From: Pseudanabaena mucicola str. Chao 1806 | GTDB taxonomy: Bacteria > Cyanobacteriota > Cyanobacteriia > Pseudanabaenales > Pseudanabaenaceae | Reading direction: 5' to 3' | NCBI RefSeq assembly: GCF_030323025.1 | Contig: NZ_CP097329.1 | Span: 1,829,001 to 1,893,000 of the forward strand | Length of the DNA: 64,000 nt | In this document: piece after piece, positions 4,988-41,365 of the stretch | Layout of the letters: every line of letters starts with the position of its first letter | Numbering within the stretch: position 1 is the stretch's first letter | Notes under the pieces: model-generated | What the model saw: only the letters and a program-made list of their open reading frames with translations | Told to the model about the DNA's origin: nothing | Databases searched by the model: none | Position numbers and translations under genes: made by a program

Positions 4988-5007
4988 ATTAGTAAAGCTT
5001 TGCTATA

Positions 5008-5108
5008 AGTAGCTCAACTTAATTAAAACCCAAACCGATAGTTTTGTTCCGCCCGCGTAGCGGGCGGAACAAAACTATCGGTTTTTAGTTTACTTATGTC
5101 TAACTACT
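5008..5108. mobile_element. TA-flanked MITE-like palindrome, family R1, copy 2 (reverse orientation)
   Basis: It starts AGTAGCTCAACTTAATTAAA and ends TTACTTATGTCTAACTACT, the reverse complement of copy 1. TA lies at 5006-5007 and 5109-5110. It sits just upstream of the CruP-like gene start. Confidence 0.85.
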
Positions 5109-5157
5109 TACTAATTTGTTGATGGTGCAGCTTCGCTGCACCATCAACAAATTAGTA
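5109..5157. mobile_element. TA-bounded perfect palindrome abutting R1 copy 2
   Basis: The stem CTAATTTGTTGATGGTGCAG/CTGCACCATCAACAAATTAG has a TTCG-type loop and shares its left TA (5109-5110) with the R1 element. Two elements meeting at one TA suggests sequential insertion at the same target. Confidence 0.7.
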
Positions 5158-15062: not shown

Positions 15063-15179
15063 AATATCTGCTGTTTTTAAGAGAAGCTTTGCTTAACAAA
15101 AATCCTCTCAAAAACTACTTTAAATTACCTCTAGTTCACACTAAATAAGTAACTAGTAAAGCAATCTATTACCGATTTA

Positions 15180-15279
15180 AGCAGCTAGACATAAGTAAAC
15201 TAAAAACCGAGAGTTTTGTTCCGCCCGCGTAGCGGGCGGAACAAAACTCTGGTTTGGGTTTTAACTAAGTTGAGCTACT
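15180..15279. mobile_element. TA-flanked MITE-like palindrome, family R1, copy 3
   Basis: A 100-bp copy starting AGCAGCTAGACATAAG and ending AAGTTGAGCTACT, with TA at 15178-15179 and 15280-15281. It shares the AGCAGCT end variant with the copy at 18099. Confidence 0.85.
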
Positions 15280-15288
15280 TATAATTAA

Positions 15289-18029: not shown

Positions 18030-18302
18030 TCAATAGATCTCATTATCCAAATCTTCAGAAAGAAGTAAAGCATGAGTTACATAATACATCGCATAGTAAG
18101 CAGCTAGACATAAGTAAACTAAAAACCGAGAGTTTTGTTCCGCCCGCGTAGAGGGCGGAACAAAACTCTGGTTTGGGTTTTAATTAAGTTGAGCTACTTA
18201 AGCATGAGATATAGACGAGCGATAACGACCGCGATCGTAAAGTAACTGTGCAGTCTTCAGATGATCATCAGACAAAAACAAGAATTTTGCCAATTCATTC
18301 AT
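18030..18302 (-). pseudogene. HEPN-domain gene interrupted by an R1 MITE
   Basis: Minus-strand codons from ATG at 18300-18302 give MNELAKFLFLSDDHLKTAQL and then LYDRGRYRSSISHA. After the element the same gene continues as YYAMYYVTHALLLSEDLDNE to a TGA at 18030. The join SISHA-YYAMYY is the classic HEPN helix. Removing the 100-bp R1 element and one TA (102 bp) restores one frame. The protein would still be only about 60 residues against the usual 120 or more, so its C-terminus was lost too. It was probably the HEPN half of an MNT/HEPN toxin-antitoxin pair. Confidence 0.8.
18099..18198. mobile_element. TA-flanked MITE-like palindrome, family R1, copy 4, inside a HEPN gene
   Basis: A 100-bp copy (start AGCAGCTAGACATAAG, end AAGTTGAGCTACT) with TA at 18097-18098 and 18199-18200. 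Because the disrupted gene can be read on both sides, the target duplication is visible as exactly TA. That is the signature of IS630/Tc1-mariner-type transposition. Confidence 0.88.
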
Positions 18303-32379: not shown

Positions 32380-32548
32380 AAATCTTCAGATTCTCAATAT
32401 CCAAAAAGGGCACGGATAATTATTCCGCTTTGACCTATTATCACGACTTATCGCAACAAGATATGGTTTGGATTTTTGAATATTTGTGAACTTCCCTTAG
32501 CATTGCCTAGATTTCCTAACATAACAATTCCGCTTATCTAGGGAAGTA

Positions 32549-32648
32549 AGTAGCTCAACTTAATTAAAACCCAAAACAGAGTTTTGTTCCGCCCGCGTAG
32601 CGGGCGGAACAAAACTCTCGGTTTTTAGTTTACTTATGTCTAGATACT
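32549..32648. mobile_element. TA-flanked MITE-like palindrome, family R1, copy 5 (reverse orientation)
   Basis: A 100-bp copy, start AGTAGCTCAACTTAATTAAA, end TTATGTCTAGATACT, TA at 32547-32548 and 32649-32650. It lies just left of a transposase fragment. Confidence 0.85.
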
Positions 32649-32683
32649 TAGGTGAAATGGCAAAATAGTAGGAAGTCATTTTC

Positions 32684-33719: not shown

Positions 33720-33820
33720 AGCGTGCTATACCAAAATCGTAGTCCCCTTATGTGTGGATTTGCCAACAATTAGTCTAAGTTCTGGTTTAAATTTCGCGCT
33801 TAGTGCTAATGTATTAAATG

Positions 33821-33912
33821 GCTCGGATCTATGCGATCTTAACGCCCGAATCGTGTCAGGGTCGGAAGACAGCAGCACTAAGGGATGCTTGAGGTAGGCG
33901 TAGTACCCGGGC
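33821..33912 (+). ncRNA. ffs: Signal recognition particle RNA, small bacterial (4.5S) type
   Basis: The conserved domain IV sequence is present: GTGTCAGGGTCGGAAGACAG, then CAGCACTAAGGGATGC. This contains the GGAA-type tetraloop and the asymmetric Ffh-binding loop. The ends GCTCGG (33821-33826) and CCGGGC (33907-33912) pair perfectly, closing a rod of about 92 nt, and TACTTTTTTT follows as a terminator. The RNA joins Ffh to deliver nascent membrane proteins to FtsY. The gene sits 39 nt before argG, so argG either has its own promoter or relies on readthrough. Confidence 0.92.
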
Positions 33913-33951
33913 TACTTTTTTTAGGTTTAGAAATCGGTTGAGGAGAGATCC

Positions 33952-37133: not shown

Positions 37134-38990
37134 TTACTGTCTCTTAGTTTCATTGATTTGCCATTGTTTTGAGGTTTCATTCCAAAGCAAACTTATTCGC
37201 AAAATCTCAGAACTAATTTTTTTCCCTTGTTTGTAGGTCAAACTGATATTTATGACAGCCGAGTTATCTTTCAATTCAATAATATTCATACTATCGACTG
37301 TTACTTGATCAACACTTTGCCACCAATTTGTAAAACTGTTAATTCCATTTGCTCCATCACGTTGAAATTTTGGAGTAAGATTCTGCCATGCTGCTGTGAG
37401 TTGTTGAGTGTTGATCAAACTGTAATATTCTTTGATAAATTCCTCAGGAGAAGCCTTAGACTGTTTTGTCGGAGATGGATTTAGAGGTGGAGGTGGAGTT
37501 ACAGTCGTTTTTGTTGTATCTAGAGTTGGAGTTGTAGACGGAGTAGTATTTGTTTTTGGAATTGAACTTGGGGTTTGATCTGATAGGGATTCATAGGCTA
37601 AGACTTTTACCGAAAATTTATCTTTTGTAAGTCCATCAGGAGTAGCCAAGGCACAATACGCATCAGAAACAGATCTTTTGTATTCTACAAGTTTGACGAA
37701 ACAACTTTGACGATCTGGGAAGTAATCAACATACACTTGCTGTAGTAAACCATCACCACCAAATACTGAAAATACTGCTGCATTCTTATATCCTTTTGAT
37801 TGCAACCTTTTGACTTGATCATTAGCTTTGTCTACATCAACAAAAGCTGAATCTGCAAGAAAAATAAATGGAGCTTTTGGAACTGATTTATTAAAGGGAG
37901 AGATTTTATTCCAGAAGGCGATGATGCCGCCATTTTGCGAAATGACAACACCTAGGGCGATCGCTGCACCAATTGCACCCCCCACGATCATCGTGGCTAA
38001 TGCTTGACCAAGGATTTTCTTCTTAGGATCATTTTGAGGCTGATAGACGTAGATATCAGGTTGATTTTGAATTGTAGATGTATAGTTTCTTGGCGTTACA
38101 GCTAATGTCTGCATATAAGACATGGCAGCTTGGTCAGGAACCTTAGTTGCATTTACTTGATTTGGGGATTGATTAACCTGCAAAGCATTCAACATTTCTC
38201 GCGCCGAACTGTAGCGATCGCGGGGATCAAATTGGAGTGACTTTGCAAATATAGTTTTTAAATCAGCACTAATACCAGTAACTTGGTTCTGCCAAAGCAC
38301 TTCACCAGTTAGGTGATCAGTACCTAATTCTTGTGGATATTTGCCCGTCAGTGCGAAGATCGCGGTTAAAGCAAGACTGTAGAGATCGCTAGCGAAAAAT
38401 GGTCTACCTGCCGCCTGTTCCGAAGCCATAAACCCAGGTGTCCCAATCACAATTGAGTGAGCCTGTTGAGCAGAACTGCGGATTGTGCTTACATTTAAAG
38501 TTTCTTTGACTGCGCCAAAATCAATCAGTACGGGTTCACCAGAACGCAGAATAATATTGTCGGGTTTAATATCACGATGAATGATGCCCCTTTCATGGAC
38601 ATAGATCAATGTTTGCAGGATGCTACTCATTAAGTAGCGCACAGCATCTTCATTCCATTTCCCATTCCTCTCTATAGTTTCCGTTAAAGTTAGACCATCA
38701 ATCCATTCTTGGACTAAATAGAACAGTCCATTTTCTATGAAATTAGCATAGAGTTTAGGAATGTAGCGACTTTCCTCGCCTAAAGTTTCCAACACCACCG
38801 CTTCACGATGAAATCGTTGCTTTAATAAGTCATACATTTGAGGATTATCGGCAACGGGCTTGAGTTGCTTGATTACACAACGACGATTAGAGGGCATTTT
38901 GGTATCTTCTGCCAAATAGGTCTCGCCAAAGCCACCACTACTGAGGACGCTAGTGATGCGATAGCGGTTATCTAAAAGGTTTGACATCAT
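37134..38990 (-). CDS. Membrane Ser/Thr protein kinase with SPOR-like and NTF2-like extracytoplasmic domains
   Basis: 618 residues from the MM at 38987-38990; ATG 39014 would add eight. The Hanks-type kinase domain (about 7-270) has the Gly loop LSSGGFGETYLAED, Lys41 in CVIKQLKP, HRD at 138-140 (HRDIKPDNI) and DFG at 157-159. One TM helix (about 330-352) is followed by a SPOR-like segment (ADSAFVDVDKANDQVKRLQ), a Thr/Pro-rich linker and a C-terminal NTF2-like domain (SPEEFIKEYYSLINTQQLTA). Catalysis is cytoplasmic and sensing is probably periplasmic. mobA follows after 17 nt. Substrate unknown. Confidence 0.9.
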   Translation of the reverse strand: MMSNLLDNRYRITSVLSSGGFGETYLAEDTKMPSNRRCVIKQLKPVADNPQMYDLLKQRFHREAVVLETLGEESRYIPKLYANFIENGLFYLVQEWIDGLTLTETIERNGKWNEDAVRYLMSSILQTLIYVHERGIIHRDIKPDNIILRSGEPVLIDFGAVKETLNVSTIRSSAQQAHSIVIGTPGFMASEQAAGRPFFASDLYSLALTAIFALTGKYPQELGTDHLTGEVLWQNQVTGISADLKTIFAKSLQFDPRDRYSSAREMLNALQVNQSPNQVNATKVPDQAAMSYMQTLAVTPRNYTSTIQNQPDIYVYQPQNDPKKKILGQALATMIVGGAIGAAIALGVVISQNGGIIAFWNKISPFNKSVPKAPFIFLADSAFVDVDKANDQVKRLQSKGYKNAAVFSVFGGDGLLQQVYVDYFPDRQSCFVKLVEYKRSVSDAYCALATPDGLTKDKFSVKVLAYESLSDQTPSSIPKTNTTPSTTPTLDTTKTTVTPPPPLNPSPTKQSKASPEEFIKEYYSLINTQQLTAAWQNLTPKFQRDGANGINSFTNWWQSVDQVTVDSMNIIELKDNSAVINISLTYKQGKKISSEILRISLLWNETSKQWQINETKRQ

Positions 38991-39193
38991 GGAGTTAATT
39001 AATCGCCTATTCATCGCCTATTATTAATTTTGGAAACCACGCAAGTTTGCCAACACTTTTGCGGTTTGGTATTACAGATCCTTGCGTTGAAGTAAAAACC
39101 AAAAAAATTTTGGAAAGTCTAATCTAGTAACACTTTCAATAAAAATATCGTGGTTTATTTAGGCGCAGAGGACTGTAATTGTTATTAGCGTTA

Positions 39194-40306
39194 TTAGCGA
39201 TCGTACAACATAAATAGTGTTTTGCGTTGCTTACAAGGTTCTAGGGTTTGCTTACCTATGAGTTCAAGCTGTTTCTTAATCTCTTGTTTGAGATTGTAAA
39301 AATCTGATTTTTGAGATACCAAAGGATCATCAATGGAATATACCTCTACGATCGCCTCTCTGCCTTTAGCAAAGAAATCACCCATTTTTAATAATTTCCA
39401 GTGATCACTGAGTTCCTCACTTACTGCTGCCGAAAATACTAAAAATCTATTTAACTTTCTAGTTAGCGATTCGATTCTGGCGGCGACATTAACAGCATCA
39501 CCGATGATTGTGTACTCTTTTTTGGTTTGAGAACCGATATTTCCTTCTAAAACTGTTCCCTTAGATAGCCCAATCCCAACGTAGAGAACTCGCAATGGGC
39601 TATTAACAGGTGCGCGATCGCGTAAAACCTCTAACTCTGCCAGAATATTGAGACTAGCTTGCAAAGCTTCATTTGCGCGATCTCCATCAAAATATGCCAT
39701 CACACAATCACCTATAAATTTGGTTACTTCACCACCTTTAGCCGCAATCTCTGAGGTGCAAACTGTAAAAAATTGATTGAGTAACTCCACAACTTCAGTT
39801 ACTTGTAGTTTCTCAGTGATACTGGTAAAACCCATAACATCTGCGAAGAAAATTATTTTTTCGGAATAGCGTGGAATCAGAGTAAGCGGATTAATGCCAT
39901 TTTCGATCGCTTGCAAAACCCCTGAATGGGTATAGTTTGCTAAAGCCATTTTTGACTCACTCAAGGTTTGCAGTAATACTTTGAATGGTTTAAGCAAAAT
40001 ATCATTATTTTCATCCAATACGATTACTTTCATCGACCAGTCAGGAAAGTATCTTTCATTTATATCTAGTTGTAATTTAAGACATAAAACTTGCTTATGA
40101 CGATCATCTCTTAAAATTTTTTCGTACAGTAAATCTACTCGCTCATCATCCCCTTCCAAAATCTGAAAGAAAATCCCACTACAACTCAGTAAAATGCCTG
40201 TAATCCCTTCCCTAACATTATTTGTTTGTGAAACAATTTCAATATTTTCTATTTCTTTTCTGGTTAATGAGCGTGAGAAATTACTAATATAGGTTAGCCT
40301 TTTCAT
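39194..40306 (-). CDS. BLUF-domain photoactivated adenylyl cyclase (OaPAC/bPAC type)
   Basis: 370 residues. The N-terminal BLUF domain (1-95) binds flavin; Tyr6 (KRLTYISNFSR), Gln48 (GIFFQILEG), Trp90 and Met92 (FPDWSM), the photochemical residues, are all present. A linker helix (100-135) leads to a class III cyclase domain (about 147-345). It has metal Asp156 (FFADVMGF) and Asp200 (KFIGDCVMAYF), Lys196 and Thr266 expected for ATP rather than GTP, and Asn273 and Arg277 (DAVNVAAR). Length and order match the Oscillatoria photoactivated adenylyl cyclase. Blue light is predicted to switch on cAMP synthesis. The gene is monocistronic, with R1 copy 6 upstream. Confidence 0.95.
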   Translation of the reverse strand: MKRLTYISNFSRSLTRKEIENIEIVSQTNNVREGITGILLSCSGIFFQILEGDDERVDLLYEKILRDDRHKQVLCLKLQLDINERYFPDWSMKVIVLDENNDILLKPFKVLLQTLSESKMALANYTHSGVLQAIENGINPLTLIPRYSEKIIFFADVMGFTSITEKLQVTEVVELLNQFFTVCTSEIAAKGGEVTKFIGDCVMAYFDGDRANEALQASLNILAELEVLRDRAPVNSPLRVLYVGIGLSKGTVLEGNIGSQTKKEYTIIGDAVNVAARIESLTRKLNRFLVFSAAVSEELSDHWKLLKMGDFFAKGREAIVEVYSIDDPLVSQKSDFYNLKQEIKKQLELIGKQTLEPCKQRKTLFMLYDR

Positions 40307-40651
40307 AGAATTGCAATATTTTTGTTAATAAAAGAAGTCAATTTCTGATGCAATTAAAGACCCCTACAACACTTGTAAGTAGCTAGACATAAGTAAACTA
40401 AAAACCGAGAGTTTTGTTCCGCCCGCGTAGCGGGCGGAACAAAACTCTGGTTTGGGTTTTAATTAAGTTGAGCTACTTAACTCAAATGTCAACAGAAGTG
40501 TAATCAGCAATAAAGCGTAACTGTTTTTATAGATACTTACAATATAAATGTATTATAAATCACATTTTGCTTAAACAGTTTCTCGGTATCTGCTCACTGG
40601 TTGCGATAGGATTAAAATTGCTGCTTTTACGTTGATAAATCATTATTTCCC
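40307..40651. other. Divergent spacer between the photoactivated cyclase and rpiA
   Basis: 345 bp containing R1 copy 6 (40378-40477) and AT-rich flanks. Promoters for both genes must lie here. I see no recognisable CRP-type palindrome (TGTGA-N6-TCACA) or riboswitch. Confidence 0.5.
40378..40477. mobile_element. TA-flanked MITE-like palindrome, family R1, copy 6
   Basis: A 100-bp copy, start AGTAGCTAGACATAAG, end AAGTTGAGCTACT, TA at 40376-40377 and 40478-40479. It is the best-preserved copy, with a perfect CCGCCCGCGTAGCGGGCGG core. Confidence 0.88.
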
Positions 40652-41365
40652 ATGAGTATTTCTGCTGAAGATATTAAAAAGTTAAAACAAGAAGTTGGTA
40701 TTGCGGCGGCGCAACGAGTCCAGTCAGGTATGGTAGTGGGTTTAGGTACTGGCTCAACTACTGCCTTTGCGATCGAGGAGTTAGGTAGACGCATTAGCGC
40801 AGGCGAGCTAACCGATATTGTTGGTATTCCAACATCATTCCAAGCCTCCGTATTAGGAAAAAAATATGGTATTCCCATCCGTAGCCTTGATGATGTTGAT
40901 CGCGTAGATGTGGCGATCGATGGTGCTGATGAGGTTGATCCCCACAAGACCTTGATTAAGGGTGGTGGTGCAGCCCATACGCGCGAAAAGGTGGTTGATT
41001 CCCTCGCCAGCCTGTTTATCGTTGTCGTTGATGAATCAAAATTAGTTGATAAGCTAGGTTCTACCTTTGCTGTGCCCATCGAAGTTTTGCCTATGGCTGT
41101 TGCACCTGTAACTAGAGCCGTCGAAAAGCTTGGTGGTAAGCCTGAACTGAGAATGGGTGTAAAAAAAGATGGTCCTGTGATTACGGATCAAGGCAATATG
41201 GTCTTAGATGTCACCTTTGATGCGATCGTTGATGCGGCTGAACTAGAAAAGACCTTAAATAATATTCCCGGTGTCGTTGAAAACGGTCTCTTTGTTGGCG
41301 TTACCGATCTCATTCTCGTTGGCGAATTTAAAGACGGCAAGCCTCAAATTCGTGAAATTTCTTAG
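40652..41365 (+). CDS. rpiA: Ribose-5-phosphate isomerase A
   Basis: 237 residues. It interconverts ribose 5-phosphate and ribulose 5-phosphate in the Calvin cycle and pentose phosphate pathway. Visible are [20 protein letters not shown] (28-47), [20 protein letters not shown] (the catalytic Asp/Glu region, about 90-110), ESKLVDKLG and PIEVLPMAV. It converges with cysK across an R7 palindrome. No anomaly seen. Confidence 0.96.

What the first reader, a model, noticed from the sequence alone, without database searches (positions are those of the whole stretch)
39194..40306. A complete BLUF-adenylyl cyclase: predicted blue-light-switched cAMP source
Seen: a BLUF domain fused to a class III cyclase in 370 residues. 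Tyr6, Gln48, Trp90 and Met92 of the BLUF photocycle, metal Asp156 and Asp200, ATP-selecting Lys196 and Thr266, and Asn273/Arg277 are all present. Known: this architecture defines the photoactivated adenylyl cyclases of Beggiatoa and Oscillatoria. Inference: a functional light-to-cAMP converter. Natural members are few and differ in dark activity and photocycle speed, so each divergent homologue is of real interest.
Basis: partly seen in the sequence, partly recalled or inferred. Interest (0 to 1): 0.85.

Follow-up and report, generated by a model that had tools for sequence, protein, structure and literature searches.

The report
Blue-light-switched cAMP enzyme in Pseudanabaena
This cyanobacterial gene encodes an intact relative of a well-studied enzyme that makes the messenger cAMP when lit with blue light; the protein is a familiar kind, but it belongs to a tail-bearing branch that arose by gene duplication in this genus and has been lost or broken in some strains.

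Summary
Window 39194-40306 encodes 370 residues: BLUF domain (1-93) plus class III cyclase (146-319). The closest characterised protein is OaPAC of Oscillatoria acuminata, 188 of 353 residues identical; bPAC is next. It is a photoactivated adenylyl cyclase by sequence: a new member of a known kind.

Surroundings add more. The genome is a Pseudanabaena; 23 of 26 genomes of the genus searched have a match, some truncated. Two paralogous branches exist, in tandem in seven genomes. The window has only 'PacB', marked by a conserved 22-residue C-terminal tail (9 of 9); PacA has 4-14 residues in 18 of 19. In OaPAC a tail damps activity (PMC6937261). PacB is broken in a same-species genome, lacks its BLUF domain in another and is a relic of about 40 residues in a third. 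A repeated hairpin element sits in this gene's leader, so expression is uncertain. Light-dependent activity is inferred, not shown.

The parts
39194..40306 (-). photoactivated adenylyl cyclase gene (PacB branch), 370 aa, stop included
   Evidence: ORF; Pfam BLUF and Guanylate_cyc; OaPAC 413.7 bits and bPAC 358.5 bits
40028..40306 (-). BLUF domain, residues 1-93, with Tyr6, Asn30, Gln48, Trp90, Met92
   Evidence: Pfam PF04940 E 2.2e-26; residues
39932..40006 (-). connector helix alpha-3, residues 101-125; Phe108 unique to this sequence in the set
   Evidence: helix 101-125 in the AlphaFold2 model, low confidence there; Phe108 against Ile in 38 of 38 others
39350..39871 (-). class III cyclase domain, residues 146-319, with Asp156, Lys196, Asp200, Thr266, Asn273, Arg277
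   Evidence: Pfam PF00211 E 9e-19; model residues 145-347 fit bPAC cyclase 5mbg with Z 28.6, rmsd 1.2 over 192 residues
39197..39262 (-). C-terminal tail, residues 349-370, PacB-specific, ending KQRKTLFMLYDR
   Evidence: 22 residues in 9 of 9 PacB sequences that reach the C-terminus; 4-14 residues in 18 of 19 PacA; aligned codons
40378..40480 (.). about 103-bp palindromic repeated element in the leader of the gene, with a terminator-like 19-pair stem
   Evidence: copies and upstream alignment; RNA fold of 40370-40490 -60 kcal/mol, z -12; terminator pattern on the minus strand 40448-40408
37134..39014 (-). Ser/Thr protein kinase gene downstream, same direction; beside PAC in 21 of 24 Pseudanabaena loci examined (some genomes counted twice)
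   Evidence: ORF; family matches, none over an NCBIfam cut-off; synteny
40652..41365 (+). gene upstream, divergent; called rpiA (ribose-5-phosphate isomerase) here from recall
   Evidence: ORF; conserved neighbour; the name was not tested by a family search

Best explanation
The gene encodes a photoactivated adenylyl cyclase of the OaPAC/bPAC type, working as a homodimer. The BLUF domain binds flavin. Blue light drives electron and proton transfer from Tyr6 and a rearrangement around Gln48, Trp90 and Met92; the signal passes along the alpha-3 helix bundle to the paired cyclase domains, which make cAMP from ATP with Asp156/Asp200 (metals), Lys196/Thr266 (adenine choice) and Asn273/Arg277 (catalysis). 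Shown here: architecture, homology, residues, purifying selection, predicted fold. Inferred from the family: flavin binding, light switching, dimer, ATP use. It belongs to the PacB branch, one of two paralogues found in tandem in Pseudanabaena; the PacA partner is absent from this genome. Further inferences, much less sure than the 0.9 given for the enzyme itself: the PacB tail restrains the cyclase, as the C-terminus does in OaPAC, and a hairpin of a repeated element in the leader lowers expression.
For: ORF and domains. OaPAC 413.7 bits over residues 1-353; bPAC 358.5 bits over 1-343; 188 of 353 residues identical to OaPAC. AlphaFold2 model, mean pLDDT 79.3, pTM 0.64; the 19 best structural rows are all OaPAC or bPAC entries, Z 27.4-31.4. 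Among 39 aligned sequences, Tyr6, Gln48, Trp90 and Met92 in 38 of 38 that have the column, Asp156, Lys196 and Asp200 in 39 of 39, Asn273 in 38 of 38. dN/dS 0.08-0.12 for the seven pairs of the window with other PacB, cyclase part 0.05-0.09. PacB clade of 8 rows with support 100/100. One BLUF match in the whole genome. Synteny. Roles of Tyr6, Gln48, Trp90, Met92: PMC11533990, passages. Tail effect in OaPAC: PMC6937261, abstract and text parts 1-2 of 4.
Against: No experiment on this protein is known to me. A same-species genome (L005/G228) has the gene interrupted, and the shared leader carries a terminator-like hairpin, so the gene may be weakly expressed or on its way out. Most whole-chain structural fits have rmsd 13-14 because the model's domain arrangement differs; residues 71-120, which hold Trp90, Met92 and most of the connector, have block pLDDT 48-64. 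The OaPAC tail did nothing when moved to bPAC (PMC6937261), and the PacB tail shows no likeness to it, so damping by the PacB tail is a guess.
Confidence: 0.9

Rival explanations
1. A decaying photoreceptor: the protein could work, but in this lineage the gene is scarcely expressed and no longer selected, after a hairpin element landed in its leader.
For: The element is shared by the window and the same-species L005, and absent from the three relatives whose upstream region aligns with it (L079, L080, L081). It matches a terminator pattern in the direction of the gene. L005's reading frame is broken by another copy. Of 11 genomes in which a PacB gene or relic can be judged, 3 have it broken.
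Against: Window and L005 differ at 3 of 360 codons compared, 2 of them synonymous: too few to show relaxation. dN/dS of the window against relatives is no higher than among other PacB pairs. The promoter is not located; it could lie in the roughly 70 bases below the element. Loss is not special to PacB: all 19 PacA found are full-length, but PacA is wholly absent from 7 of 26 genomes of the genus, four of which have or had PacB alone with no PacA trace found. For that reason I lowered this odds from 0.25 to 0.2 on re-checking.
Confidence: 0.2
2. PacB is tuned to work as a heterodimer with PacA, and the lone PacB here has kept, or regained, full homodimer activity.
For: In 6 of 6 tandem genomes that can be judged, exactly one partner carries a change at a substrate or catalytic residue (Thr266Ala in PacB of G002, G003, G021, G022 and in PacA of G017; Arg277Lys in PacB of G006), while the three PacB-only genomes with an intact gene (G000, G004, G015) keep both residues. 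G003's PacB lacks its BLUF domain.
Against: Few independent changes: three of the four PacB Thr266Ala rows form one supported clade, and the fourth (G003, too partial for the tree) is 96% identical to them. Two single-copy PacA (G018, G023) also have Ala266, so Ala is tolerated without a partner. No evidence of physical contact.
Confidence: 0.1
3. A light-switched guanylyl cyclase or a cyclase of mixed specificity.
For: Glu264 replaces the Asp264 of OaPAC next to the base pocket.
Against: Lys196 and Thr266 are kept; Glu264 is in all 28 Pseudanabaena sequences that reach the position; the full-length solved relatives are adenylyl cyclases.
Confidence: 0.04

Closest known systems
OaPAC, photoactivated adenylyl cyclase of Oscillatoria acuminata (PDB 4yus, 5x4u, 9f1w)
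   Different: Lys63 for Arg63 and Asn29 for Lys29 near the flavin; Glu264 for Asp264; Gly159 for Ser159; Phe108 for Ile108 in the linker helix; a different C-terminal tail of 22 residues after position 348, against 18 in OaPAC (PMC6937261)
bPAC of Beggiatoa sp. (PDB 5m27)
   Same: Same architecture; 358.5 bits over residues 1-343; structural Z 31.4
   Different: bPAC has only three residues after the conserved Glu348 (PMC6937261); more distant by score
PacA paralogue of Pseudanabaena (named here), e.g. L058:1495-2568, L053:348-1421
   Same: 68-76% identical in the 11 PacA of the alignment; same locus next to rpiA and the kinase in many genomes
   Different: Tail of 4-14 residues in 18 of 19; near-fixed differences at residues 57, 306 and 346
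Euglena PAC-alpha/PAC-beta
   Same: BLUF plus adenylyl cyclase; two kinds of subunit in one organism (PMC6937261 text)
   Different: Each Euglena subunit has two BLUF and two cyclase domains

Membership tests
BLUF-type photoactivated adenylyl cyclase (OaPAC/bPAC) | N-terminal BLUF domain and C-terminal class III cyclase in one chain | tested here: met
   Pfam matches 1-93 and 146-319; collinear with OaPAC and bPAC
BLUF-type photoactivated adenylyl cyclase (OaPAC/bPAC) | BLUF photocycle residues Tyr6, Gln48, Trp90, Met92 and flavin contacts Asn30, Asp67 | tested here: met
   All present; contacts taken from PMC11533990 passages. A further contact, Arg63 of OaPAC, is Lys here
BLUF-type photoactivated adenylyl cyclase (OaPAC/bPAC) | Catalytic set: metal Asp156/Asp200, Lys196/Thr266, Asn273/Arg277 | tested here: met
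   All present; role assignments of the metal Asp and Asn273 recalled; effects of bPAC K197, T267 and R278 mutations in PMC8522238 passages
BLUF-type photoactivated adenylyl cyclase (OaPAC/bPAC) | Fold of OaPAC/bPAC | tested here: met
   VIA-align 2: the 19 best rows are OaPAC or bPAC, Z 27.4-31.4; whole-chain rows have rmsd 13.2-14.2 (domain arrangement differs), the cyclase-only row 5mbg 1.2 over 192 residues
BLUF-type photoactivated adenylyl cyclase (OaPAC/bPAC) | Homodimer through the alpha-3 helix bundle | not tested
   Only a monomer was modelled
BLUF-type photoactivated adenylyl cyclase (OaPAC/bPAC) | Flavin binding, light-induced red shift, light-dependent cAMP from ATP | not testable with these tools
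   Needs protein
PacB branch of Pseudanabaena (defined here) | Placed in the supported clade and carries the 22-residue tail | tested here: met
   Clade of 8 rows 100/100; tail

The most novel reading that the evidence does not exclude
Pseudanabaena evolved, by tandem duplication, a natural pair of light-to-cAMP converters with different gain: PacA with a short C-terminus and PacB with a conserved 22-residue tail that acts as a built-in brake. In each pair one partner may also be altered at the active site (Thr266Ala or Arg277Lys). The window strain runs on the braked copy alone.
Probability: 0.2. Interest if true: 0.6.

Novelty: new member of a known kind. Interest (0 to 1): 0.42.

Why it matters
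PACs are used to raise cAMP in cells with light, and what sets their gain is not understood (PMC6937261) while dark activity is a practical problem (PMC8522238). One genus with 27 full-length natural versions (19 PacA, 8 PacB), natural Thr266Ala and Arg277Lys changes and two tail types gives a ready comparison set. It also offers a genus in which the natural role of a BLUF cyclase could be tested, since genomes with both, one or no copy exist.

Tried and rejected
Guanylyl cyclase: considered and put low because Lys196 and Thr266 are kept. A remnant of PacA in the window: tblastn of all collected PAC proteins against the window gave nothing outside the gene better than E 0.27; the whole genome has one BLUF match.

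The upstream PAC-like hit in L003/L004 (33% over 140 residues) is, in L003, a separate cyclase ORF of 558 aa, not a PacA remnant.

cAMP receptors in this genome: ten cNMP_binding matches. A motif scan from recall and reading the frames did not settle which bind cAMP; left open.

NCBIfam has no match for the PAC protein at E 0.001. Rfam has no match at the hairpin element at gathering scores. The promoter scan found no more than shuffles give (4 found, mean 6.0). Literature searches: 31 papers, 30 listed, on PAC, BLUF and cyanobacteria; 'Pseudanabaena' with 'BLUF': 1 paper, titled on orange carotenoid protein; 7 papers; 0 papers; 236 papers, 12 listed, none of the 12 with the word Pseudanabaena; 33 papers, 15 listed. 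No listed title is on PacA/PacB pairs. That is not proof that the pairs are unpublished, since only openly licensed papers are held and lists were cut.

A dN/dS contrast between the branches: PacB pairs gave 0.08-0.16 (10 pairs), PacA 0.03-0.08 (25 of 28 pairs with a defined value), but most PacA pairs have saturated dS, and at similar dS near 1 the gap is small (0.080 against 0.060-0.074). I do not build on it.

Rows dropped: L001, L037, L049 (same gene as the window) and L005 (broken) were left out of the sequence set, and identical rows were merged; the two partial PacB rows (L064_614, L065_504) were left out of the tree. Alignment A1 holds 24 of the 39 sequences, chosen by me.

Full report
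What is there. Window 39194-40306, minus strand, holds a 370-codon ORF; the plus strand in frame 1 has many stops. Pfam finds BLUF at residues 1-93 and Guanylate_cyc at 146-319, both far over their cut-offs. The best solved relatives are OaPAC (413.7 bits, residues 1-353) and bPAC (358.5 bits, residues 1-343). Identity to OaPAC is 188 of 353: 55 of 98 in the BLUF core, 23 of 47 in the linker, 104 of 180 in the cyclase, 6 of 28 near the C-terminus. The AlphaFold2 model (mean pLDDT 79.3, pTM 0.64; residues 80-86 and 355-370 under 50; blocks 71-120 at 48-64) has helix 101-125 as the connector. Its 19 best structural matches are all OaPAC or bPAC entries. The whole-chain fits have rmsd 13.2-14.2, so the domain arrangement of the monomer model should not be trusted, while the cyclase domain alone fits bPAC at 1.2 over 192 residues.

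Residues. In the set of 39 aligned sequences (19 PacA, 10 PacB, 10 others), Tyr6, Gln48, Trp90, Met92, Asn30 and Asp67 never vary where the column is present; Asp156, Lys196 and Asp200 never vary; Thr266 is Ala in 7; Arg277 is Lys in 1 and Ser in 1. Differences of the window from OaPAC near the flavin are Asn29 and Lys63 (Lys63 is in 9 of 9 PacB and 13 of 19 PacA); Glu264 replaces Asp264; Gly159 replaces Ser159. Phe108 in the connector helix is unique (38 of 38 others Ile). In bPAC, changes at the residues matching Lys196, Phe197, Thr266 and Arg277 alter dark or light activity (PMC8522238, passages); the window has the bPAC wild-type letter at all four (numbering offset of one).

Which organism and how common. 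Relatives place the window in Pseudanabaena. The window is 99.6-99.9% identical to L005, contig JADBWH010000047.1 of Pseudanabaena sp. M53BS1SP1A06MG, in the three aligned blocks over 2 kb. The genome handle G228, reported as same species, has the same truncated match at coordinates that fit that contig, so I take G228 and L005 as one genome. Of 388 genomes of the class searched with the family profile at E 1e-70, 23 match, in 1 of 160 genera; within the genus 23 of 26 match, G228 included, and G010, G016 (76% complete) and G019 do not. One search also found members in Laspinema, Oscillatoria, Phormidium, Planktothricoides and Oscillatoriales records, and one in a MAG labelled Omnitrophota.

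Two paralogues. Seven genomes carry two PAC genes side by side: G002, G006, G017, G021, G022 with both full-length, G003 and G009 with a partial second copy. The tree puts the window in a clade of 8 (100/100), here called PacB; it groups with five PacA rows at 88/85, so that PacB is nested in PacA only with moderate support. Nineteen genomes have PacA; twelve have PacB or a piece of it; seven have both. PacA is wholly absent from seven of the 26: G000, G228, G004, G015, G019, G010, G016. The locus is conserved: rpiA, PAC gene or genes, Ser/Thr kinase; the order is rpiA-PacA-PacB in G006, G009, G017 and rpiA-PacB-PacA in G002, G003, G021, G022. The kinase lies beside PAC in 21 of the 24 loci compared (some genomes twice). 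In G004 and G015 a hit to another cyclase lies upstream in place of rpiA, and in G007 and G011 the kinase is on another contig.

The tail. After the position of the conserved Glu348, PacB has 22 residues in 9 of 9 sequences that reach the end, with KQxKTLFxLYD kept; PacA has 4-14 in 18 of 19 (one, L067, has 22 of a different sequence); in the outgroup L017-L021 and L025 have 18, and the other four 4-11. The window and L055, 78% identical overall, share the last 12 residues exactly while 3 of the 12 codons differ silently. In OaPAC, photoactivity was inversely proportional to C-terminal length, and the last nine residues were inhibitory; moving 15 residues of the OaPAC tail to bPAC had no effect (PMC6937261, abstract and parts 1-2 of 4). 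A damping role of the PacB tail is therefore a hypothesis.

Active-site differences in pairs. In the 6 tandem genomes where both members reach residue 277, exactly one member is altered: Thr266Ala in PacB of G002, G003, G021, G022; Thr266Ala in PacA of G017; Arg277Lys in PacB of G006. G009 cannot be judged (PacB cut by a contig end at residue 204). Two single-copy PacA (G018, G023) also have Ala266, and the four PacB cases are close relatives, so this is a lead, not a statistic.

Signs of loss. PacB is broken in L005/G228 (30 bases, residues 296-305, replaced by about 85 bases of a hairpin element), lacks its BLUF domain in G003 (only residues 104-370), and survives in G019 only as about residues 330-370 between rpiA and the kinase. 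That is 3 of 11 PacB that can be judged. All 19 PacA found are full-length, but PacA has vanished without trace from seven genomes, so it is not shown that PacB is the more readily lost. Selection on both is purifying; the branches' dN/dS cannot be compared fairly, because dS is saturated in most PacA pairs. L005 and G003 are draft assemblies, and an assembly error is not excluded.

The leader. A 103-bp palindromic element lies at 40378-40480, about 70 bases above the start codon. It has 6 copies in the window and at least 40 places in the genome (40 of 211 first-look candidates were scored). As RNA the stretch folds at -60 kcal/mol, z -12, and fits a terminator pattern towards the gene. L005 has the same element at the same place; the relatives L079, L080 and L081 align in part upstream but lack it. 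The start of transcription is unknown, so whether the element dims the gene is open.

Context. The genome has 11 Guanylate_cyc matches, this gene included, and 10 cNMP_binding matches, so light-made cAMP would probably join a pool fed by other cyclases (inference).

Verdict. The finding is a true and intact photoactivated adenylyl cyclase gene by sequence, an ordinary member of a known and important kind. The less ordinary parts are its paralogue history, the conserved tail and the marks of loss.

Noticed in passing
window 40378-40480; also 1179-1282, 5006-5111, 15178-15281, 18096-18201, 32547-32650: A palindromic repeated element of about 103 bp, at least 40 places in the genome, without an Rfam match; a copy breaks the PAC gene in a same-species genome.
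   Followed up: partly
L024:1808-2869: A PAC in a MAG labelled Candidatus Omnitrophota has Tyr197 and Ser277, the positions at which bPAC changes F198Y and R278A cut dark activity (PMC8522238); the label of the contig was not checked.
   Followed up: partly
L065:504-1304 (= L012:7004-7804): PacB of G003 has lost its BLUF domain but keeps an open cyclase frame from residue 104, a possible light-blind cyclase.
   Followed up: partly
L095:5759-5881, minus strand: Relic of the last 40 or so PacB residues between rpiA and the kinase in G019, a genome without a PAC.
   Followed up: yes
L003:3930-5606: In the PacB-only genome G004 a second cyclase ORF of 558 aa lies just upstream of PacB; G015 (L004) has a like match.
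   Followed up: no
window 33820-33916, plus strand: Bacterial small SRP RNA (RF00169, 58.6 bits).
   Followed up: no
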